Assembly (NCBI RefSeq): GCF_004364975.1
Contig: NZ_SOBW01000007.1
Location: 1,302,001 to 1,366,000, forward strand
From: Gelidibacter sediminis
GTDB taxonomy: Bacteria; Bacteroidota; Bacteroidia; Flavobacteriales; Flavobacteriaceae
Length of the DNA: 64,000 bases
Direction of reading: 5' to 3'
Each line of letters begins with the position of its first letter. Positions within the stretch are counted from its first letter, which is position 1. The notes under the pieces are model-generated. The model made no database searches and was not told the origin of the DNA. It saw nothing but the letters and a program-made list of their open reading frames with translations. This document shows, piece after piece, positions 4,034 to 41,244 of this stretch. The position numbers and the translations under genes were made by a program.

Positions 4034-4121
4034 GCGCGCATTATTGTATCTTTATAGAGTTTCATATCCTGCCGTAATCAACGGAGTCACAGGGTGATTG
4101 TTGATCATTAAACTCAAAAAA

Positions 4122-5276
4122 ATGCCATTTTATCATAAACTCGGGAACATACCTCCCAAAAGACATACGCAATTCCGAAAACCGGATGGCAGCTTGTATT
4201 CTGAACAATTGTTTGGCACCATCGGTTTTGATGGCATGTACACCAATTCCTATCATGAGCAACGTCCAACCCAGGTTAAGGAAATCAGAAAGCAATACAG
4301 TGTAGCGCCCAAAATTGCCAAGGCCAATCACATTCAATCGTATCGCTTCCGCGGATTTGAAGTGAAGCCTGAAAACGATTATTTGGAAAGCCGTAAAACA
4401 GTGCTTACCAATTCAGACTGCAGCATCATTTTAGCAGCACCAAAACAGTCTACCACAGCTTATTTTTATAAAAATACCGATGCTGATGAATTGATTTTTA
4501 TTCATAAAGGCAGTGGAAAACTACGCACACATCTGGGAAATCTCGATTTCAAATACGGCGATTATCTACTCGTGCCGAGAGGCATCATCTATAAAATGGA
4601 TTTTGATACGGAAGATAACCGCTTGTTCATTGTCGAGTCTCGCCGCCCAATCTACACTCCAAAACGTTACCGTAACTGGTTTGGACAATTGTTGGAACAT
4701 GCGCCGTATTGTGAACGCGACCTACGCCGTCCTCAAGAATTAGAAACCCACAATGAAACCGGCGACTTTCTCATAAAAGTCAAAAAGCAGAATGATATTT
4801 TTGAAATGATCTATGCGGCACATCCATTTGATGTGGTCGGGTATGATGGGTATAATTATCCGTATGCCTTTTCAATCCACGATTTTGAACCTATTACCGG
4901 TCGTATCCACCAGCCGCCACCTGTGCATCAAACTTTCGAAACCGATGCCTTTGTGGTCTGTAGTTTTGTACCGCGTTTGTATGATTACCATCCGTTGAGC
5001 ATTCCAGCGCCTTACAACCACAGTAATATTGATAGTGATGAGGTGTTGTATTATGTGGACGGCGATTTCATGAGCCGTAATGATGTGGATGCTGGACATA
5101 TTTCACTACATCCCGCTGGTATCCCGCACGGTCCGCATCCAGGAGCCGTAGAACGCAGTCTCGGGAAAACTAAAACTGATGAATTGGCCGTAATGGTCGA
5201 TACGTTTAAACCGTTGCAGATTACGGAAGAAGCCTTGAAAATTGCGGATGAGGATTATTTTAGGTCGTGGGTTTGA
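4122..5276 (+). CDS. hmgA: Homogentisate 1,2-dioxygenase
   Basis: 384 residues. The enzyme opens the ring of homogentisate to maleylacetoacetate with a non-haem iron, the third step of tyrosine and phenylalanine breakdown. It is a cupin-fold protein. The diagnostic C-terminal motif HPAGIPHGPHPGAVERS is present with its metal-site histidines, as is QPPPVHQTFETDAFVV upstream (written here from two adjacent pieces). It is shorter than proteobacterial and eukaryotic HmgA, as is usual in Bacteroidota. I chose the ATG at 4122: the frame extends to a TTG at 4098, but that would add only a lysine-rich tail (LIIKLKK) before MPFYHKLGNIPP, which fits the family N-terminus. hppD lies downstream in the same direction, separated by a repeat-rich insertion, which suggests that the two were once directly adjacent. 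Confidence 0.95.
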   Translation: MPFYHKLGNIPPKRHTQFRKPDGSLYSEQLFGTIGFDGMYTNSYHEQRPTQVKEIRKQYSVAPKIAKANHIQSYRFRGFEVKPENDYLESRKTVLTNSDCSIILAAPKQSTTAYFYKNTDADELIFIHKGSGKLRTHLGNLDFKYGDYLLVPRGIIYKMDFDTEDNRLFIVESRRPIYTPKRYRNWFGQLLEHAPYCERDLRRPQELETHNETGDFLIKVKKQNDIFEMIYAAHPFDVVGYDGYNYPYAFSIHDFEPITGRIHQPPPVHQTFETDAFVVCSFVPRLYDYHPLSIPAPYNHSNIDSDEVLYYVDGDFMSRNDVDAGHISLHPAGIPHGPHPGAVERSLGKTKTDELAVMVDTFKPLQITEEALKIADEDYFRSWV

Positions 5277-5435
5277 TAGTATTGAGTAGTTAGTATTGAG
5301 AATTAAGTACAAAGAACAAAGAACATAGAACATAGAACATAGAAAATAGAAAAGAGAGAAGAGAGAATAGAGAATAGAGAATAGAGAGAAGAGAGAAGAG
5401 AGAAGAGAGAGGATTTGCTTCAATTTAAATTTGAT
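5277..5435. repeat. GA-rich low-complexity head of repeat array A
   Basis: Short tandem units GAACATA (about 5314-5345) are followed by runs of GAGAATA and GAGAGAA up to about 5412, then GGATTTGCTTCAATTTAAAT. The GA tract is close to the reverse complement of the CT-rich tail that ends every ~101-bp unit that follows. The same head, ending GGATCTGCTTCAAATTGAAT, is found again at 6202-6270. Confidence 0.8.
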
Positions 5436-5772
5436 AGAAAACAGAATAAATGAAAGATTGAAAAGAAAGACTAGGATGTGAAAATTTTGACGATACAAAG
5501 TCTCTAATCTCTATTCTCTTCTCTCTTTTCAAAAAAAGAAAACAGAATAAATGAAAGATTGAAAAGAAAGACTAGGATGTGAAGATTTAGACAATACAAG
5601 TCTCTACTCCCTATTCTCTTCTCTCTTTTCTAAAAAAATAAAACATAAATAAAGAAAGACTAGAGTGCGAGAAATTAGAGAGTGTAAAAGTCTCTATTCT
5701 CTTCTCTCTTTTCGAAATAATTTAACACAAGAATTAGAATGCGAGAAATACGAGAATCAAAGTCTCTATTCT
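5436..5772. repeat. Repeat array A: four ~101-bp units upstream of the four-helix-bundle gene
   Basis: Each unit reads roughly AAAACAGAATAAATGAAA, GAAAAGAAAGACTAGGATGT, a short AT-rich middle, AAGTCTCTA, then CTCTATTCTCTTCTCTCTTT. The GACTAGGAT-type anchors are at 5469 and 5570, with degenerate forms at 5658 (GACTAGAGTG) and 5731 (GAATTAGAATG). Within each unit AGACT and AGTCT can pair. Units 3 and 4 are shorter and more diverged and lead straight into the ORF at 5801. There are no unique spacers, so this is not a CRISPR array. Confidence 0.85.
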
Positions 5773-5800
5773 TTTTTTATATAAACAGAGATGCCAGGTA

Positions 5801-6160
5801 ATGACAATAAAAATTCGACATAATTATAAAAATTTGAGGATATGGTCCCTGGGTTTAGATATTGTTAATGATGTTTTTGATGTTATTGGAGAGTTGCCAA
5901 GCGATGAAAAATTTGGATTAAAATCGCAGCTTAGTAGATGTTCAATATCAATACCGAGTAATATTGCAGAAGGCTCTTCAAGAACTGATAAATCATTTTC
6001 GCATTTCATTGATATCGCTCTAGGTTCTTCGTTCGAATTAGAAACGCAATTAATCATTGCCAGTAACAGGAATTATATAACGAAAGAAAAATTAAATCAG
6101 ATACAAGAGAAAATAGCGGAATTTCAAAAAATGACGATGAGCTTTCAGAATAAGCTTTAG
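5801..6160 (+). CDS. Four-helix-bundle protein (23S rRNA intervening-sequence / S23 family)
   Basis: 119 residues. The hallmark SIPSNIAEGSSR lies at about residues 50-61, preceded by LRIWSLGLDIVNDVF and followed by helices with LETQLIIA, all typical of the IVP/S23 family (also related to the Avd accessory protein of diversity-generating retroelements). The family forms a small homo-oligomeric helical bundle. Its function is unknown, although members are encoded inside intervening sequences of 23S rRNA in some bacteria. Here it stands alone between hmgA and hppD with four copies of a structured repeat on each side. No reverse transcriptase is near. Its setting suggests a repeat-associated element rather than a gene of aromatic metabolism. 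Confidence 0.9.
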   Translation: MTIKIRHNYKNLRIWSLGLDIVNDVFDVIGELPSDEKFGLKSQLSRCSISIPSNIAEGSSRTDKSFSHFIDIALGSSFELETQLIIASNRNYITKEKLNQIQEKIAEFQKMTMSFQNKL

Positions 6161-6201
6161 TAGGGGTGTTCTTCATTGTAAACGAAATTCTTCAATGGAT
6201 A

Positions 6202-6270
6202 TGAGAATAGAATAGAATAGAGAATAGAGAATAGAGAGAAGAGAGTGGATCTGCTTCAAATTGAATTTTA
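6202..6270. repeat. GA-rich head of repeat array B
   Basis: GAGAATAGAATAGAATAGAG and further GAGAATA/GAGAGAA units lead into GTGGATCTGCTTCAAATTGA. This is a diverged copy of the head at 5346-5435. It shows that head plus units were duplicated as a block around the ORF. Confidence 0.8.
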
Positions 6271-6670
6271 TAGAAAACAGAATAAATGAAAAATTGAAAA
6301 GAAAGACTAGGATGTGAAAATTTTGACGATACAAAGTCTCTACTCTCTATTTTCTTCTCTCTTTTCTAAAAAATAAAACAGAATAAATGAAAAATTGAAA
6401 AGAAAGACTAGGATGTGAAAATTTTGACGATACAAAGTCTCTACTCTCTATTCTCTTCTCTCTTTTCAAAAAAAGAAAACAGAATAAATGAAAAATTTGA
6501 AAAGAAAGACTAGGATTTGAAAATTTTGACGATACAAAGTCTCTAATCTCTATTCTCTTCTCTCTTTTTTAAAAATAAAACATAGCAAAAGAAAAATTTG
6601 AAAAGAAAGACTAGGATGTGAAGATTTAGACAATACAAGTCTCTACTCTCTATTCTCTTCTCTCTATTCA
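6271..6670. repeat. Repeat array B: four ~101-bp units downstream of the four-helix-bundle gene
   Basis: The GACTAGGAT anchors are at 6305, 6406, 6508 and 6609, giving a regular spacing of 101-102 bases. The last two units carry the same sequence variants, in the same order, as the first two units of array A (AAAATTTTGACGATACAAAG, then AGATTTAGACAATACAAG). This indicates segmental duplication or recombination between arrays rather than independent growth. Each unit ends in a CT-rich tail followed by an A-run. Confidence 0.85.
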
Positions 6671-6737
6671 AAAAAAAAAGATAAAAGAAAATAGAGTGAT
6701 TAAACATCATCTAAATCATAACATAAAATCATAAATA

Positions 6738-7898
6738 ATGAGTAAAGACATAAAATCCGTTGAATACGGGCTAGAGAAAATTTTTGAAGGGGCATCAGAC
6801 TTTTTACCACTATTAGGTACAGATTACGTAGAGTTTTACGTGGGTAATGCTAAGCAAGCGGCTCACTTTTACAAAACTGCTTTCGGATTTCAGAGTTATG
6901 CCTATAAAGGTTTGGAAACGGGATCGAGAGATGAGGTGAGTTATGTGCTCAAACAGGATAAAATCCGATTGGTACTGACCACGCCTCTAAATAGCAAGTC
7001 ACCAATAAACGACCATATCGTGAAACATGGTGATGGGGTTAAAGTGGTGGCATTATGGGTTGAAGATGCGCGTAGTGCGTATGAAGAAACCACCAAGCGT
7101 GGTGCAAAATCGTATATGGAACCAACCGTGGAGACGGATGAACATGGTGAAGTGGTAAGAGCCGGGATTTACACTTATGGCGAAACCGTCCACATGTTTG
7201 TAGAACGCAAAAATTATAATGGCACCTTTATGCCAGGATTTAAAGCATGGAAATCTGATTACAATCCGGAGCCTGTAGGCTTGAAATTTATTGACCATAT
7301 GGTCGGTAACGTTGGTTGGGGAGAAATGAATACTTGGGTCAAATGGTATGAAGATGTGATGGGCTTTGTGAACTTCCTCTCTTTTGATGATAAGCAAATC
7401 CATACCGAATATTCGGCGTTGATGAGTAAGGTAATGAGCAACGGCAATGGCCGCATCAAATTCCCAATCAATGAACCAGCTGAAGGCAAAAAACGCTCCC
7501 AAATAGAAGAATATTTGGACTTTTACGAAGGCCCAGGGGTACAGCACATAGCAGTGGCAACAGATGATATCATTACCACAGTGGCCAAATTAAAATCGAG
7601 AGGGGTTGAATTTTTGTCCACACCTCCGGAAGAATATTATAGAGCCGTTCCTGGACGTCTGGAAGAGCACAGCCATGAATTGCGGGAAGATATTGAAACC
7701 CTAAAAAGCTTGGGCATCATGATTGATGCTGATGAGGAAGGCTACTTATTGCAAATCTTTACCAAACCTGTTGAAGATCGGCCAACTTTATTCTTTGAAA
7801 TCATTCAGCGTATGGGTGCCAAAGGCTTTGGTGCAGGTAATTTTAAAGCACTTTTTGAGTCTATAGAAAGAGAGCAGGAATTGCGTGGTACACTGTAA
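6738..7898 (+). CDS. hppD: 4-hydroxyphenylpyruvate dioxygenase
   Basis: 386 residues. The enzyme converts 4-hydroxyphenylpyruvate to homogentisate, the substrate of HmgA. Two vicinal-oxygen-chelate domains are visible (about 20-150 and 180-360). The iron ligands are in the second: His in KFIDHMVGNV (about 186), His in GVQHIAVATDD (about 268) and Glu in LFFEIIQRMG (about 353). The C-terminal GFGAGNFKALFESIE is the family's substrate-gating helix. The start ATG follows repeat array B by about 70 bases. No consensus promoter was found immediately upstream, so the gene may be expressed from within or beyond the repeats. It is followed by a good terminator. Confidence 0.97.
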   Translation: MSKDIKSVEYGLEKIFEGASDFLPLLGTDYVEFYVGNAKQAAHFYKTAFGFQSYAYKGLETGSRDEVSYVLKQDKIRLVLTTPLNSKSPINDHIVKHGDGVKVVALWVEDARSAYEETTKRGAKSYMEPTVETDEHGEVVRAGIYTYGETVHMFVERKNYNGTFMPGFKAWKSDYNPEPVGLKFIDHMVGNVGWGEMNTWVKWYEDVMGFVNFLSFDDKQIHTEYSALMSKVMSNGNGRIKFPINEPAEGKKRSQIEEYLDFYEGPGVQHIAVATDDIITTVAKLKSRGVEFLSTPPEEYYRAVPGRLEEHSHELREDIETLKSLGIMIDADEEGYLLQIFTKPVEDRPTLFFEIIQRMGAKGFGAGNFKALFESIEREQELRGTL

Positions 7899-29420: not shown

Positions 29421-30833
29421 ATGGAAGATTTAAATAGTAACCCGTATCACGAGGTTTTTACGCGACAAAAGGCAAATCAATTTAAAATAGGGAATAGTAC
29501 TTATAAAGAACGCATCAAAAAATTGGACGCTCTTAAAACGGCTTTGGAAGTCAATTATAAGCAAAAAATCCGGGAGGCCATGTATGCCGATTTTAAGAAA
29601 CCATTCTTAGAAACTGATTTGACGGAAATCTATCCGGTACTGACCGAGATTAAATTCGCTAAAAACAATTTAAAATCGTGGATGAAGGACCAGAAAGTGG
29701 ATACGCCTTTGGCACTGCTAGGCGCTTCTTCATATATTGTATATGAACCAAAAGGGGTGTGTTTAATTATATCGCCGTGGAATTTCCCTATTAATTTAAC
29801 TTTTGGGCCGCTAGTATCTGCTATAGCTGCAGGAAATACTGTTATAATTAAACCTTCAGAAATGACCCCCAACGCTTCTAAAGTCATGGCTGACATTGTT
29901 AAGGATTTGTTTCAGGATGACGAGGTGGCTCTTTTTGAAGGTGAAGTTGAAGTTTCTGAAAACTTGTTGAAATTACCTTTTAACCACATTTTCTTTACAG
30001 GCTCTCCTCAAGTAGGAAAGATTGTGATGAAAGCCGCTTCCAAACATTTGACCTCGGTAACCTTGGAATTGGGTGGTAAGTCGCCCACTATTATTGACGA
30101 TTCCGCCAATTTGGAGAAAGCTGTTGAGAAACTAATTTTCGGAAAATTTACCAATGCAGGTCAAACCTGTATTGCGCCAGACTACGTGTTATTACAGGAC
30201 ACTCTTGAAGAAAAATTTAAAAGTTTATTTAAGGAAAAAATTAAAACGTTTTACACGGATAATGCGGAAGCTTCAGAGTCGTATTGCCGCATTGTCAATG
30301 CAAAGCATTTTGAACGCTTAACAGGGTATATTGAGGAGGCCAAGCACAACACAAGTACCATCGTCTCCGGTGGGGCTTCTAACAGCAGTGATCATTTTAT
30401 TGAGCCCACTTTGGTGTTTGATGCACCCGAAGATTCAAAACTAATGCAAGACGAAATCTTTGGTCCCATTCTTCCTGTCAAAACGTTTACGAGTTTGCAG
30501 GAGCCGGTGGATTATATCAATTCTAAAGAAAAACCTTTAGCCTTGTACATATACTCGAAATCTAGTAAAAACATTGATTTTATTATAAGCAATACCCGCG
30601 CGGGAAGTGGATGTGTCAACCATAATCTGTTACAGTTTTTAAATCATAATCTGCCATTTGGGGGTAGTAATAATAGTGGCATAGGAAAATCGCACGGTTT
30701 CTTTGGTTTTGAGGCTTTTTCCAATAAACGCGCCATGATGAAACAGCACACCATGGGAGCTACCGATTTGTTGACACCACCTTATACTAATTTTAAACAG
30801 AAATTGATTGATTTGACATTGAAGTGGTTCTAG
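29421..30833 (+). CDS. NAD(P)-dependent aldehyde dehydrogenase (class 3-like)
   Basis: 470 residues, the length of the ALDH3/fatty-aldehyde group. The nucleotide-binding and catalytic motifs are present: IISPWNFPINLTFGPLVSAI (about 112-131), NHIFFTGSPQVGKIVMKAA, the general base Glu in VTLELGGKSPTI (about 212-223) and the nucleophile Cys in FTNAGQTCIAPDY (about 240-252). It oxidises aldehydes to acids, possibly fatty or aromatic aldehydes. The C-terminal GGSNNSGIGKSHGFFGFEAFSN is typical of the class. The start ATG is the only good one. No operon partners. Its stop codon abuts a heptanucleotide repeat. Confidence 0.93.
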   Translation: MEDLNSNPYHEVFTRQKANQFKIGNSTYKERIKKLDALKTALEVNYKQKIREAMYADFKKPFLETDLTEIYPVLTEIKFAKNNLKSWMKDQKVDTPLALLGASSYIVYEPKGVCLIISPWNFPINLTFGPLVSAIAAGNTVIIKPSEMTPNASKVMADIVKDLFQDDEVALFEGEVEVSENLLKLPFNHIFFTGSPQVGKIVMKAASKHLTSVTLELGGKSPTIIDDSANLEKAVEKLIFGKFTNAGQTCIAPDYVLLQDTLEEKFKSLFKEKIKTFYTDNAEASESYCRIVNAKHFERLTGYIEEAKHNTSTIVSGGASNSSDHFIEPTLVFDAPEDSKLMQDEIFGPILPVKTFTSLQEPVDYINSKEKPLALYIYSKSSKNIDFIISNTRAGSGCVNHNLLQFLNHNLPFGGSNNSGIGKSHGFFGFEAFSNKRAMMKQHTMGATDLLTPPYTNFKQKLIDLTLKWF

Positions 30834-30846
30834 GTTTTAGTACCTA

Positions 30847-31034
30847 GTATTCAGTATTCAGTATTCAGTATTCAGTGTTCAGCATTCAGCATTCAGCATT
30901 CAGTGTTCAATATTCGGTGTTCAGTGTTCAGTATTCAGCATTCAGCATTCGGTGTTCAGTGTTCAGTATTCAGCATTCAGCATTCGGTGTTCAGTGTTCA
31001 GTATTCAGTGTTCAGTATTCAGTGTTCAGTATTT
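30847..31034. repeat. Heptanucleotide tandem array with a 35-bp higher-order period
   Basis: About 26 tandem copies of a 7-bp unit in three main variants, CAGTATT, CAGTGTT and CAGCATT, with occasional CGGTGTT. CGGTGTT recurs at 30915, 30950 and 30985, giving a 35-bp (5 x 7) higher-order repeat. There are no spacers and no coding frame. It lies between two convergent genes (ALDH and GH92). Confidence 0.92.
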
Positions 31035-31129
31035 AGCGGGTCAGCTGAATGAGGTGTATTATAGGGGAGATGCTGCGATGTTTAAAAAAGCATTTGTTTA
31101 CTGGCAGCCAATGGCTAAATAGCTATATT

Positions 31130-34093
31130 TTACATTTCTTTGGCCTCTGGCTGTTCAATAACAGGCTGCGACTCAATGCTGATTTCGTCAACAAAAATCC
31201 AACTTTTTCCATTGTCCTTTGCGCCAGGGTGCCATTTTGGAAGTTGCTCCATTTTTTTGGCAATAACCTTAAGGTGGGTTGCGGTTCTACCTTTTAAGTT
31301 GAACGTAATGGTACGGATATCGACGTCTTCTGATCGTTTGCTCGCATTTAAGTTTTGTTTGCCAATAAATTGATAGGTGTTGCCATCCGTAGAGGTGTAA
31401 CAGAAAACTTCCGAAGGGTAAAATATCCAAGAGCGTTGGTCCTGCAACACATTAATGGATACTTTTTGCACGTGTTTGGCTTCGCCTAAATCGATAATTG
31501 CCAAAACATCTTCACCCTCATAACCTTGCCACAAGCCCGTTCTATGGTCTTTGGTGCCTTTAACGCCATCAATTAAGGCATTTGGCCCGCCAGCACTGTA
31601 AGCCTTAGCGTAGTTGGTTTGCAAGGTGATGGTTCTATTGGAGTCAAGTTTAAAAAACTCAGTGGCTATCGTTCTGCTTTTCTCATCTTCTTTCTCGGCA
31701 TACATCTTTAAAGTTGAAGCTTCTGAAATGATAAATGGTTGTTCGTATTTCGTGTATACAGAATCATTCAACGTATAAAAAATATCAGTTTCCAATTGCG
31801 CGATTCCTAAAGTGACTTCTGTTTCTTCCTTAAATGAAATATCGGCCTTTGCGATAAACGGCATCGGCACAATTTTAAAATCGCTAATGGCTGATGTTGG
31901 TGCTTCGTCATCATCCGTACCCCAATCAGAAGGTTCATCGGTCATAAAAAATTCTAATATGCCGCCAGATAAAATATCTTTTGAAGTGATAAAGGTTTTA
32001 TGCAATCGGCTTCCGTTCAAACGGACATAATCGATATACTTATTGTCATCTGAAAGATCAAATGCTTTTATGGTAAAGTTTTTTCCGTTTTCAAGATTGA
32101 TAGTCGCTTTATCAAATAATGGGGTGCCAATAATATAATCATTGGATCCTGGCGTGACCGGATAAAAGCCCATTGCTGAAAATACATACCACGCGCTCAT
32201 TTGTCCGCAGTCTTCATTGCCTGCAATGCCATCTGGATCATTTTTATAGAGCGTGGTGAGTATTTGATGCACTCTTTCTTGGGTCTTATAAGGTTTATTG
32301 ACAAAGTTATAGAGATAAGCCATGTGGTGACTCGGTTCGTTGCCATGTGCATATTGACCTATGAGCCCGGTAATGTCTTGCATGTGGCGGCCAGCAGTGT
32401 TGCTCTCTGCAGTAAACAGCGTATCCAATTGGGCCTCTAAAATTTCTTTTCCGCCCATTAATTCAATAAGGCCAGAAACATCTTGAGGCACATAAAAACT
32501 GTATTGCCAAGCATTGGCTTCAGTGTAATTGTAATTGACCTCATACGGATCAAACGGCGATGTCCAGGTGTTTTTGAATCGGCCCCTCATAAATTTGGTT
32601 TCAGGATCAAACACATTTTTATAGTGTTGCGCCCGCTTTATATAGGTTTCGTAATCGTTTTGTTTATCTAGGGCTTGTGCCATTTTAGCAATGGTCCAAT
32701 CATCATAGGCATACTCTAAGGTTTTGGACACCGATTCGCTTTCTGCTTCCACCGGAATAAATCCGAGCGACTTATATGATTTTAGTCCCAAATGGTCTTT
32801 GTTGGCCGAGTGTTTCATCGCTTTAAAAGCTCTCTCCGCATCAAAACCTTTAATCCCTTTTAGATAAGCGTCAGCAATTACCGGTACCGCATGATAGCCA
32901 ATCATGGTGCCTGTGTAATTAGCACTTAAATCCCACATGGGCAGGATGCCACCTTCATCATATTTTGCAAGCATGGTATTTACAAAATCGCTTGTACGCT
33001 TGCGTTCAATAATACTGTATAAGGGGTGGGCAGCGCGGTAGGTGTCCCATAATGAAAATACCGTATAGTATTGAAAATCTTTGTTGGTGTGTATCTTTTG
33101 ATCCATACCTCTATAACGCCCATCTACGTCCTGATACAAATTAGGGGCAATCATAGTGTGGTACAGGGCGGTGTAAAAGTTGATTTTATGGTCTTGGTTA
33201 TCCGTTTCAATGACAATTTTCTCCAATTGTTTTTCCCAGGTACTTTGGGCTATTTCTTTTACCTGATCAAAAGTCTTATCACCTACTTCAGCTTCCATGT
33301 TTTTCTTCGCGCCATCTTCATCTACAGCGCTAATCCCAATTTTTACGTAAATAGGTTCATTTTTAGGATTGTCAAATTGAAATACGGCCTTTCTATTGGT
33401 CAGGTTTTGTTTTCTTGCAATCAAATCAACGGACAAGGGGTGCGAAAACTTGATGTAATAAAAAAGTTTCTGATTGCTGGCCCAGGATCTGGAATGGCGG
33501 TAGCCTGTTAGTTCGGTTCTGGAGGTCTGCTTAATTTTAGAGGCCAATAACTGATCGCGGTGTTCCAAGTCTAAAACGATGATTTGATTTTTAGAAGTGG
33601 GGAATTGGTATTTGTGTATGCCGCTGCGCTCAGAAACGGTGAGTTCTACTTCAATATTACTGTCTTCCAAAAGCACTTTATAGTAGCCCGGTTCGGCTTT
33701 TTCAGTGGCATGTGAAAATTTTGATCGGTAGCCTTTTTTGCCATCACTGCCATTGTTGAACACCACTTCAGTAGTAGGCATCAGCAATACATCAGCATAA
33801 TCGCTAACACCAGTACCGCTAAGGTGCGTATGGGTAAATCCGTAAATGTGGGTGTCACTATAATGATAGCCAGAAGCGCCATCCCAACCTTCTAGTCGGG
33901 TGTCAGGGCTCAGCTGCATCATTCCAAAGGGCATAGTCGCGCCAGGAAAGGTGTGCCCGTGACCGCCAGTTCCGATAAAAGGATTGACTAAGGACACTAA
34001 AGATTTATTTTTTTTAGCTGGCGTTGTTTTTGGCCGGTCAGAGCAGCTTACGATTAGTAAAAACGCAGTAATAGCTATAAAAATAGACTTCAT
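31130..34093 (-). CDS. GH92-family alpha-mannosidase lipoprotein with extra C-terminal domains
   Basis: 987 residues. Lipobox LLIVSC (Cys 17) indicates a lipid anchor. The GH92 catalytic region covers about 30-760: VNPFIGTGGHGHTFPGATMP, then FGMMQLSPDTRLEGWDGASG, YGFTHTHLSGTG, and near the end GNEDCGQMSAWYVFSAMGFY and PVTPGSNDYIIGTPLFDKA. GH92 enzymes are calcium-dependent exo-alpha-mannosidases acting on N-glycan or mannan-type oligosaccharides. Beyond the usual length there is a beta-rich domain (about 790-850, chitobiase-C-terminal-like) and a discoidin-like domain (about 850-980, with ALIDGVKGTKDHRTGLWQGY). No SusCD pair is adjacent, so this is not an obvious polysaccharide-utilisation locus. 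Confidence 0.93.
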   Translation of the reverse strand: MKSIFIAITAFLLIVSCSDRPKTTPAKKNKSLVSLVNPFIGTGGHGHTFPGATMPFGMMQLSPDTRLEGWDGASGYHYSDTHIYGFTHTHLSGTGVSDYADVLLMPTTEVVFNNGSDGKKGYRSKFSHATEKAEPGYYKVLLEDSNIEVELTVSERSGIHKYQFPTSKNQIIVLDLEHRDQLLASKIKQTSRTELTGYRHSRSWASNQKLFYYIKFSHPLSVDLIARKQNLTNRKAVFQFDNPKNEPIYVKIGISAVDEDGAKKNMEAEVGDKTFDQVKEIAQSTWEKQLEKIVIETDNQDHKINFYTALYHTMIAPNLYQDVDGRYRGMDQKIHTNKDFQYYTVFSLWDTYRAAHPLYSIIERKRTSDFVNTMLAKYDEGGILPMWDLSANYTGTMIGYHAVPVIADAYLKGIKGFDAERAFKAMKHSANKDHLGLKSYKSLGFIPVEAESESVSKTLEYAYDDWTIAKMAQALDKQNDYETYIKRAQHYKNVFDPETKFMRGRFKNTWTSPFDPYEVNYNYTEANAWQYSFYVPQDVSGLIELMGGKEILEAQLDTLFTAESNTAGRHMQDITGLIGQYAHGNEPSHHMAYLYNFVNKPYKTQERVHQILTTLYKNDPDGIAGNEDCGQMSAWYVFSAMGFYPVTPGSNDYIIGTPLFDKATINLENGKNFTIKAFDLSDDNKYIDYVRLNGSRLHKTFITSKDILSGGILEFFMTDEPSDWGTDDDEAPTSAISDFKIVPMPFIAKADISFKEETEVTLGIAQLETDIFYTLNDSVYTKYEQPFIISEASTLKMYAEKEDEKSRTIATEFFKLDSNRTITLQTNYAKAYSAGGPNALIDGVKGTKDHRTGLWQGYEGEDVLAIIDLGEAKHVQKVSINVLQDQRSWIFYPSEVFCYTSTDGNTYQFIGKQNLNASKRSEDVDIRTITFNLKGRTATHLKVIAKKMEQLPKWHPGAKDNGKSWIFVDEISIESQPVIEQPEAKEM

Positions 34094-40040: not shown

Positions 40041-40113
40041 TGGCCTATGGTGTAACTGGCAACACGTCTGGTTTTGGTCCAGAAGAGTCTAGGTTCGAGC
40101 CCTAGTAGGCCAA
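40041..40113 (+). tRNA. tRNA-Gln (anticodon TTG)
   Basis: Acceptor TGGCCTA (40041-40047) pairs with TAGGCCA (40106-40112), with discriminator A at 40113. The anticodon arm TCTGG-TTTTGGT-CCAGA gives anticodon TTG. The T arm is CTAGG-TTCGAGC-CCTAG. The 3' CCA is not encoded. It stands alone with its own promoter and terminator. Confidence 0.97.
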
Positions 40114-40121
40114 CAAGAAAT

Positions 40122-40155: not shown

Positions 40156-40170
40156 GTTTTTGTAGTTATT

Positions 40171-40216
40171 AGAAAAGAGAAAATAGAAAAGAGAACAGAG
40201 AGCAGAGAGCAGAGAT
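40171..40216. repeat. GA-rich tract related to the heads of arrays A and B
   Basis: AGAAAAGAGAAAATAGAAAA followed by GAGAACAGAGAGCAGAGAGC resembles the GA-rich heads at 5346-5412 and 6202-6247. No ~101-bp units or ORF accompany it. Confidence 0.6.
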
Positions 40217-40343
40217 TTGTTGGGAGCAGTGCTCAAATATTGGTTTTCGATTTATGATTTCTTTATATAGTTATAAATTAGACTAAGAGATTTACGTCTA
40301 ATCATCAAACAGTCTAAGATCTCAAAAACAAAGCCCACTCAAG
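40217..40343. other. Intergenic stretch after the tRNA
   Basis: AT-rich, no gene or structure recognised. Confidence 0.4.
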
Positions 40344-40415
40344 TCTAACAGCGAAGCGGTCTTTGTTATCTATTCTAACAGCGAAGCGGTCTTTTTTACA
40401 ACAGCGAAGTGGACT
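40344..40415. repeat. Three copies of an AACAGCGAAGCGGTC repeat overlapping the usp stop codon
   Basis: TCTAACAGCGAAGCGGTC begins at 40344 and 40374. A third, variant copy, ACAACAGCGAAGTGGACT, spans 40398-40415. On the minus strand the core reads GACCGCTTCGCTGTT with a CGC-TTCG-type foldback. The third copy supplies the TAG stop of the universal stress gene (40414-40416). Confidence 0.8.
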
Positions 40416-41244
40416 ATGTCAAAATCTTAAACGTCATTACTGGTCGCTTAGAATGGTTGACAAGGTCTTCACTAATGCTTCCATTGAAAAAATGCGCGAT
40501 GCCTTGACGTCCATGCGTGCTAATTCCGATTAAATCAGCATCAATATCTTTGGAAAAATTCAATATACCCTGTTCTACACTGTCGTCGTTATAAATATGC
40601 GTAGAGTAATTTTCGAATTCAGAATCTTTAATGAATGCATTAATCCTTTTTCTGGCTTCAGAAGTGGATATAAAACTATTGGCGGTATTGACCATCACCA
40701 AGTACATTTTGGCGTTAAAAATTTTGGCAACTTCTGTAGCCTGTTTGTATGTTTCTCTGTTGTCTTTATTAAAATCTGATGCAAAAACAAAGCGATCAAC
40801 TTTAAAGTTGGCGTGCTCATTTTTAATGACTAAAACAGGAATGTCAGAGGTGCGAACTACCTTTTCAGTATTGGAGCCAATAAACATTTCTTTTAAACCT
40901 GTAGCCCCGTGGGAGCCCATCACGATGAGATCGACATTGTATTCGTGGCAGGTGTCAATAATACTGCTGAATGAAGGGTAGTTTTTAACAATATCATGCA
41001 CCATTAAACCATTTAAATAGTCCCTAGCCAGCAGGTCCTCAAATTTTTGCTGTGCAAGTTTCATGAAAAACATGGCTTCAGGGATTGGGCTTGCAGCGTT
41101 CATCATATCAACTTCTTGCAACGGAAGCTCAAGCATGTGCAATAAGTATATTTTGGAATCGTGTTTTCTAGCCAATTGTGCAGCTACTTTTAAAGCATTT
41201 TCTGCCTGTTCAGAGAAGTCGGTGGGAACGAGTATTTTTTTCAT
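40414..41244 (-). CDS. Universal stress protein with two tandem UspA domains
   Basis: 276 residues. Domain 1 (about 1-140) opens KKILVPTDFSEQAENALKVA and has the ATP-binding motif VMGSHGATGLKEMFIGSNTE. Domain 2 (about 148-276) opens RFVFASDFNKDNRETYKQA and ends GISTHGRQGIAHFFNGSISE, with the loop less conserved. UspA proteins bind ATP/AMP and are induced by starvation, redox or envelope stress. The target is unknown. The C-terminal residues and stop codon run into the repeat described at 40344-40415. Divergent from the rimP operon. Confidence 0.93.
   Translation of the reverse strand: MKKILVPTDFSEQAENALKVAAQLARKHDSKIYLLHMLELPLQEVDMMNAASPIPEAMFFMKLAQQKFEDLLARDYLNGLMVHDIVKNYPSFSSIIDTCHEYNVDLIVMGSHGATGLKEMFIGSNTEKVVRTSDIPVLVIKNEHANFKVDRFVFASDFNKDNRETYKQATEVAKIFNAKMYLVMVNTANSFISTSEARKRINAFIKDSEFENYSTHIYNDDSVEQGILNFSKDIDADLIGISTHGRQGIAHFFNGSISEDLVNHSKRPVMTFKILT

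What the first reader, a model, noticed from the sequence alone, without database searches (positions are those of the whole stretch)
5346..6670. Four-helix-bundle gene framed by two four-unit repeat arrays between hmgA and hppD
Eight ~101-bp units (anchors at 5469, 5570, 5658, 5731, 6305, 6406, 6508 and 6609) lie four on each side of an IVP/S23-family ORF, each array led by the same GA-rich head. Variant order is preserved between the arrays, so the whole block was duplicated or is exchanged. The insertion separates two genes of one pathway. No recombinase or reverse transcriptase is present. The layout suggests that the bundle protein acts on, or is mobilised with, the repeats: a possible undescribed repeat-protein system.
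Basis: partly seen in the sequence, partly recalled or inferred. Interest (0 to 1): 0.72.

Follow-up and report, generated by a model that had tools for sequence, protein, structure and literature searches.

The report
IVP gene with matching heptamer-repeat arms
A small four-helix protein gene sits between two metabolic genes with repeats on both sides; surveying its relatives shows that many such genes in this bacterial phylum are framed by 7-letter repeats running in opposite directions, and that related proteins carry the same 7-letter word wherever they lie, which suggests an undescribed protein-plus-repeat element.

Summary
The layout is real: two GA-rich heads, two arrays of about 101-bp units (units 3 and 4 decayed), and an IVP ORF (PF05635) between hmgA and hppD. 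The 101-bp unit is a local accident: it occurs nowhere else in this genome or in 299 family genomes, and two congeners carry degenerate head and units there without IVP. Five other genera carry the IVP at this site with no detectable unit.

The general rule lies underneath. In 78 Flavobacteriales IVP genes and 81 from a separate scan, the two flanks are reverse complements far more than mismatched flanks or other genes' flanks (p 4e-27, 4e-30), with a 7-nt period and fixed polarity (AG-rich 5' arm, CT-rich 3' arm). The heptamer word differs between IVP clades, but related IVPs at different sites share it (cosine 0.42 vs 0.12; 0 of 2000 permutations). IVPs are under purifying selection, sit between co-directional genes and need no reverse transcriptase. 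There is no G-U excess, so arms read better as inverted recognition repeats than as RNA stems. Verdict: a new variant of the rRNA intervening-sequence (IVS/S23) kind. Binding and mobility are untested.

The parts
4098..5276 (+). hmgA-like gene (homogentisate 1,2-dioxygenase family), upstream neighbour
   Evidence: PF20510 49.7 bits, PF04209 21.8 bits, TIGR01015 below its cut-off
5305..5410 (+). GA-rich head 1, 7-nt period (ATAGAAA/AGAGAAT words): 5' arm
   Evidence: TRF period 7; inverted to the CT tails of the units, score 23 at 5349-5530
5436..5535 (+). unit 1
5536..5637 (+). unit 2 (94% to unit 1)
5638..5718 (+). unit 3, shortened and diverged (74-77% to units 1-2); 74% to the unit next to hppD in congener G006
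   Evidence: blastn 94% over 81 nt to the G006 spacer
5719..5775 (+). unit 4, decayed
5801..6160 (+). IVP / S23-family four-helix-bundle protein, 119 aa
   Evidence: PF05635 E 1.9e-32, TIGR02436 102 bits; solved relative 2GSC E 9e-16; dN about 0.25-0.27 against dS about 1.6-1.7 to its relatives
6203..6246 (+). GA-rich head 2
   Evidence: 92% identical block with head 1; inverted to a CT tail, score 19.5 at 6213-6368
6272..6372 (+). unit 5
6373..6473 (+). unit 6
6474..6574 (+). unit 7
6575..6676 (+). unit 8 (carries the unit 2 variant)
6738..7898 (+). hppD (4-hydroxyphenylpyruvate dioxygenase), downstream neighbour
   Evidence: TIGR01263 455 bits, over cut-off

Best explanation
The block is a decorated copy of a widespread kind of small genetic element in Bacteroidota: an IVP gene framed by two arms made of a roughly 7-nt word, the right arm being the reverse complement of the left, lodged in the spacer between two genes read in the same direction. 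Shown here: inverted arms, 7-nt period, fixed polarity, arm word tied to the IVP clade at different sites, purifying selection on the protein, presence and absence at operon sites. Inferred: the IVP (a pentamer in its solved relative) recognises its own word in both arms as double-stranded nucleic acid and bridges the two ends, and this recognition maintains the element and occasionally lets it move with host enzymes, since no catalytic protein is encoded in it. In this genome one arm-plus-loop segment was amplified into the 101-bp units and the head was duplicated, so that four units ended up on each side. The IVP was probably present between hmgA and hppD before the genus arose and was lost in the eight congeners examined, two of which keep the arm remnants.
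For: Arms reverse-complementary within an element: median score 12.0 vs 7.0 for mismatched flanks and 7.5 for other genes, p 4e-27 and 4e-19, n=78; repeated on loci of a separate collection scan, 12.5 vs 7.0 and 7.5, p 4e-30 and 7e-19, n=81. Period 7 and no other lag: 16/78 IVP genes have an array within 200 nt, 0.73 expected; 11/81 vs 0.7. Polarity: AG 270 vs CT 35 in 5' arms, 60 of 61 elements one way; first 60 nt upstream 388:200 vs 745:668 for other genes, downstream 204:322 vs 849:616. Cognate word: pairs at different sites with IVP similarity of at least 0.5 have arm cosine 0.415 vs 0.122, 0 of 2000 permutations; without the clade of the window's IVP 0.256 vs 0.117, 0 of 2000. The AGA(G/A)AAT word recurs in most of the window IVP's close relatives at hmgA-hppD, thiolase-ACAD and other sites. 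At the one thiolase-ACAD site two IVP clades carry two different words. Both neighbours co-directional in 73 of 78. dN/dS well below 1. At one site three genomes have IVP plus arms and six lack both. Same IVP at hmgA-hppD in Winogradskyella sp. and four unnamed genera. No G-U excess (143 vs 190 A-C), as expected of a DNA-level inverted repeat. That the solved relative is a pentamer is from PMC4990558.
Against: No binding, expression or movement was observed. Many IVP genes have weak or no detectable arms, and arms below score 11.5 were left out of the word test. Proteins mostly cluster by site, so movement is rare, and part of the word-clade link may be common descent of a moved unit rather than recognition. 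Some IVP-less spacers also hold heptamer-armed hairpins or arrays, so arms are not exclusive to IVP genes. An earlier whole-flank comparison showed little or no link between IVP similarity and flank similarity (down-down only, rho 0.10). The window's own arms are far from its ORF, and the window entered the word test by a unit segment in the CT reading, not by its head.
Confidence: 0.45

Rival explanations
1. RNA intervening sequence in an mRNA: the arms pair in the polycistronic transcript, putting the IVP gene in the loop of a long hairpin that RNase III cuts, as in 23S rRNA IVSs. The element is tolerated in operons because it is cut out or folded away.
For: Same architecture as the Coxiella IVS: S23 ORF in the loop of a 28-bp terminal stem cut by RNase III, with tandem heptamers GACAGAT just upstream of the S23 start (PMC4990558). 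Co-directional position in 73/78. Spacer RNAs here and in G006 fold better than shuffles, z -4.17, -2.48 and -3.40.
Against: Among mismatches in the arms, wobble pairs are not favoured: G-U 143 vs A-C 190, whereas selection for RNA pairing should favour G-U. The arm word follows the IVP clade, which pairing alone would not require.
Confidence: 0.25
2. Arms are by-products: slippage makes heptamer arrays, template switching copies one arm onto the other, and arms are inherited with the IVP gene without being recognised by it.
For: Copy number and arm length vary freely; mismatches show no wobble bias; IVP-less heptamer arrays exist; here the arm was amplified into 101-bp units without need.
Against: Fixed AG/CT polarity; word conserved across genera at which synonymous sites are saturated for several pairs; heptamer arrays strongly enriched at IVP genes.
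Confidence: 0.22
3. One reading: the 101-bp unit is the recognised or mobilised repeat.
For: Units frame the gene on both sides with the same head.
Against: Unit absent elsewhere in this genome and in 299 family genomes apart from short GA/CT matches; related units without IVP in congeners.
Confidence: 0.04

Closest known systems
23S rRNA intervening sequences with S23/IVP ORF (Coxiella, Leptospira)
   Same: IVP-family ORF between complementary terminal arms in a transcribed region; heptameric direct repeats next to the ORF in Coxiella (PMC4990558)
   Different: Sits between protein genes, not in rRNA; arm word differs by IVP clade; protein under purifying selection rather than decaying; no wobble signal for an RNA stem
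bAvd / Avd accessory protein of diversity-generating retroelements
   Same: Distant homology of the protein (bAvd 33 bits, below cut-off)
   Different: No reverse transcriptase in the genome, and scores below the Avd cut-offs
Heptamer TAACTGA arrays of Beggiatoaceae, Cyanobacteria and some Bacteroidetes (PMC4679880)
   Same: Intergenic direct heptamer repeats, also in Bacteroidetes
   Different: A term search of that paper shows no mention of S23, four-helix or intervening sequences; arrays there are one word, mostly upstream of start codons
Miniature inverted-repeat elements (MITE-like)
   Same: Gene-less spacers with inverted arms exist beside gene-bearing ones
   Different: Arms are short tandem words of variable sequence, and no transposase family is known to go with them

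Membership tests
IVP / S23 protein family (PF05635, TIGR02436) | Profile score over the curated cut-off | tested here: met
   112.1 vs 33.8 and 102.5 vs 24 bits
23S rRNA intervening sequence | Lies inside a 23S rRNA gene | tested here: not met
   Lies between hmgA and hppD; 14 distant loci also show no rRNA at Rfam gathering score
23S rRNA intervening sequence | Complementary terminal arms | tested here: met
   GA head against CT tails; general for IVP genes
23S rRNA intervening sequence | Excision of the RNA by RNase III | not testable with these tools
   Needs RNA work
Diversity-generating retroelement Avd | Score over the Avd or bAvd cut-off | tested here: not met
   bAvd 33.1 vs 40; Avd 23.2 vs 80
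Diversity-generating retroelement Avd | Reverse transcriptase present | tested here: not met
   No PF00078 match in the window's genome; G010, G014 and G015 have IVP genes and none either
Transposon with terminal inverted repeats | Transposase and target-site duplication | not tested
   No transposase-sized ORF lies between the arms; target-site duplications were not examined

The most novel reading that the evidence does not exclude
IVP proteins are sequence-specific readers of clade-specific heptamer words, and IVP genes with their inverted word arms form a large, undescribed class of protein-plus-repeat elements living in operon spacers, of which the rRNA intervening sequences are one specialised branch.
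Probability: 0.4. Interest if true: 0.82.

Novelty: new variant of a known kind. Interest (0 to 1): 0.62.

Why it matters
IVP/S23 proteins have been known for decades with no function assigned. A protein whose clade predicts the 7-letter word on both sides of its gene gives a direct, testable binding target for the family, links rRNA intervening sequences to a broader class of elements in mRNA operons, and explains part of the puzzling heptamer arrays in Bacteroidota genomes.

Tried and rejected
Whole-flank comparison of IVP similarity with flank similarity gave no clear link; restricting to the aligned arms did, so the word result depends on first choosing arms by their complementarity. G-U wobble test for an RNA stem: negative. 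Reverse transcriptase as mobiliser: not required. Search for gene-less hairpins in 400 kb of this genome: none at score 17 or more, one heptamer-armed one at the lower threshold outside the window. Literature searches with the terms used found no description of heptamer arms at IVP genes; only open-access text was searched, and one query was malformed. IVP remnants in congener hmgA-hppD spacers: none significant.

Full report
Observation. The two GA-rich heads, the repeat units and the IVP ORF are all present at the stated places. The anchors check out one by one; spacings are 101, 88 and 73 in the first array and 101, 102 and 101 in the second. Units 3 and 4 are decayed. A 222-nt block (head, unit 1 and part of unit 2) recurs with 92% identity. 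The ORF at 5801-6160 is an IVP/S23 protein, with the solved relative 2GSC. The neighbours match hmgA and hppD.

The 101-bp unit is local. It has no further copy in the genome, and in 299 genomes of the family only fragments of at most 35 nt match outside this locus, mostly the CT tail. None of eight congeners has an IVP in this spacer (the six spacers tested by profile show none); in G001 and G006 the spacer holds the GA head and two diverged units, with inverted arms scoring 19.5 and 12.5. Five other genera (Winogradskyella sp. L135, and L270, L271, L287, L295) have an IVP 70-80% identical to the window's at the same place. The simplest history is an old IVP here, lost in most of the genus, with arm amplification in the window's species; re-acquisition cannot be excluded.

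General rule. The genome has eight IVP matches, and 27 of 39 genomes searched have some. I compared the 100 nt before each IVP start with the reverse complement of the 100 nt after its stop. Own pairs score 12.0, mismatched pairs 7.0, other genes 7.5 (n=78). A scan of genome contigs gave 79 named loci, nearly all Bacteroidota, and the result repeated: 12.5, 7.0 and 7.5 (n=81 ORFs). The first set includes congeners sharing sites, so its elements are not all independent, and I did not check the second set for overlap with the first. Period 7 stands alone among the lags tested. IVP genes have both neighbours in their own direction in 73 of 78 cases; for comparison, 76% of ordinary adjacent gene pairs are co-directional.

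Polarity. The 5' arm is AG-rich and the 3' arm CT-rich in 60 of 61 elements with a difference. Flanks of other genes do not show this.

Word and clade. Taking the 116 elements whose arms align at 11.5 or more, arm 4-mer similarity rises with IVP similarity among pairs at different sites. With sites separated strictly by any similarity of flanking proteins, close pairs have cosine 0.415 against 0.122; without the clade of the window's IVP 0.256 against 0.117; 0 of 2000 permutations reach either. Permutations shuffle arms among elements and do not model relatedness, so a shared history of moved units can also produce this. Most close relatives of the window's IVP, at the hmgA-hppD, thiolase-ACAD and other sites, carry AGA(G/A)AAT-type arms, with a few exceptions such as L284 and L290. 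At the thiolase-ACAD site one IVP clade has CAAGANN arms and another has the GA word.

Mechanism. If arms were kept only for RNA pairing, G-U pairs should be tolerated and the word could drift. Neither is seen: G-U 143 against A-C 190, and the word follows the clade. An inverted pair of recognition arrays read as double-stranded nucleic acid fits better. This step is inference. Fold energies of the spacers are better than shuffles, so an RNA hairpin may still form.

Selection and machinery. dN is well below dS within sites, so the protein is kept for something; saturated pairs were not usable. No reverse transcriptase is needed in the genome. The protein falls below Avd cut-offs.

Presence and absence. 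At one site (downstream gene of the CoA-transferase type, named from its sequence only) G000, G001 and G006 have IVP and arms, and six genomes have neither. At others, IVP-less spacers keep heptamer traces or short-loop heptamer hairpins (the output was cut, and not every spacer was read). This suggests gain, decay and gene-less relics.

Relation to known things. The Coxiella 23S IVS has an S23 ORF, a 28-bp terminal stem cut by RNase III, and tandem GACAGAT heptamers before the ORF (PMC4990558). The elements here share that plan but not the rRNA location. Intergenic heptamer arrays were reported for TAACTGA in several phyla (PMC4679880) without, in the passages searched, a link to IVP genes.

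Noticed in passing
window 30824-31041: Long heptamer array (AGTATTC type, about 27 copies) after an aldehyde-dehydrogenase-like ORF; no IVP ORF was seen in the stretch read (30300-31600). Possibly a relic of an IVP element.
   Followed up: partly
window 40159-40222: Short GA heptamer array just after the tRNA-Gln at 40041-40114.
   Followed up: no
window 40340-40420: Three copies of a short 'aacagcgaagcggtct'-like motif; similar 'gcagcggtct' or 'agaccgctgcg' strings appear in L115 and in congener spacers (L227, L220).
   Followed up: no
L051 and L052, hmgA-hppD spacer: In G002 and G008 the spacer holds a REP-like element with ccctcccgaagggagggc and a ctccccttt/cggggagattaagaggggc end instead of GA arms.
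   Followed up: no
L050, L053, L054, hmgA-hppD spacer: G004, G005 and G007 carry AGAGTCA/AAGATTCA heptamers and a longer shared repeat of roughly 130 nt there, without IVP.
   Followed up: no
L117 17390-17560: IVP-less GA-armed hairpin in another intergenic stretch of this genome, similar in style to the hmgA-hppD arms.
   Followed up: no
G005: Seven PF00078 matches with the same score and frame length, looking like copies of one reverse transcriptase element.
   Followed up: no
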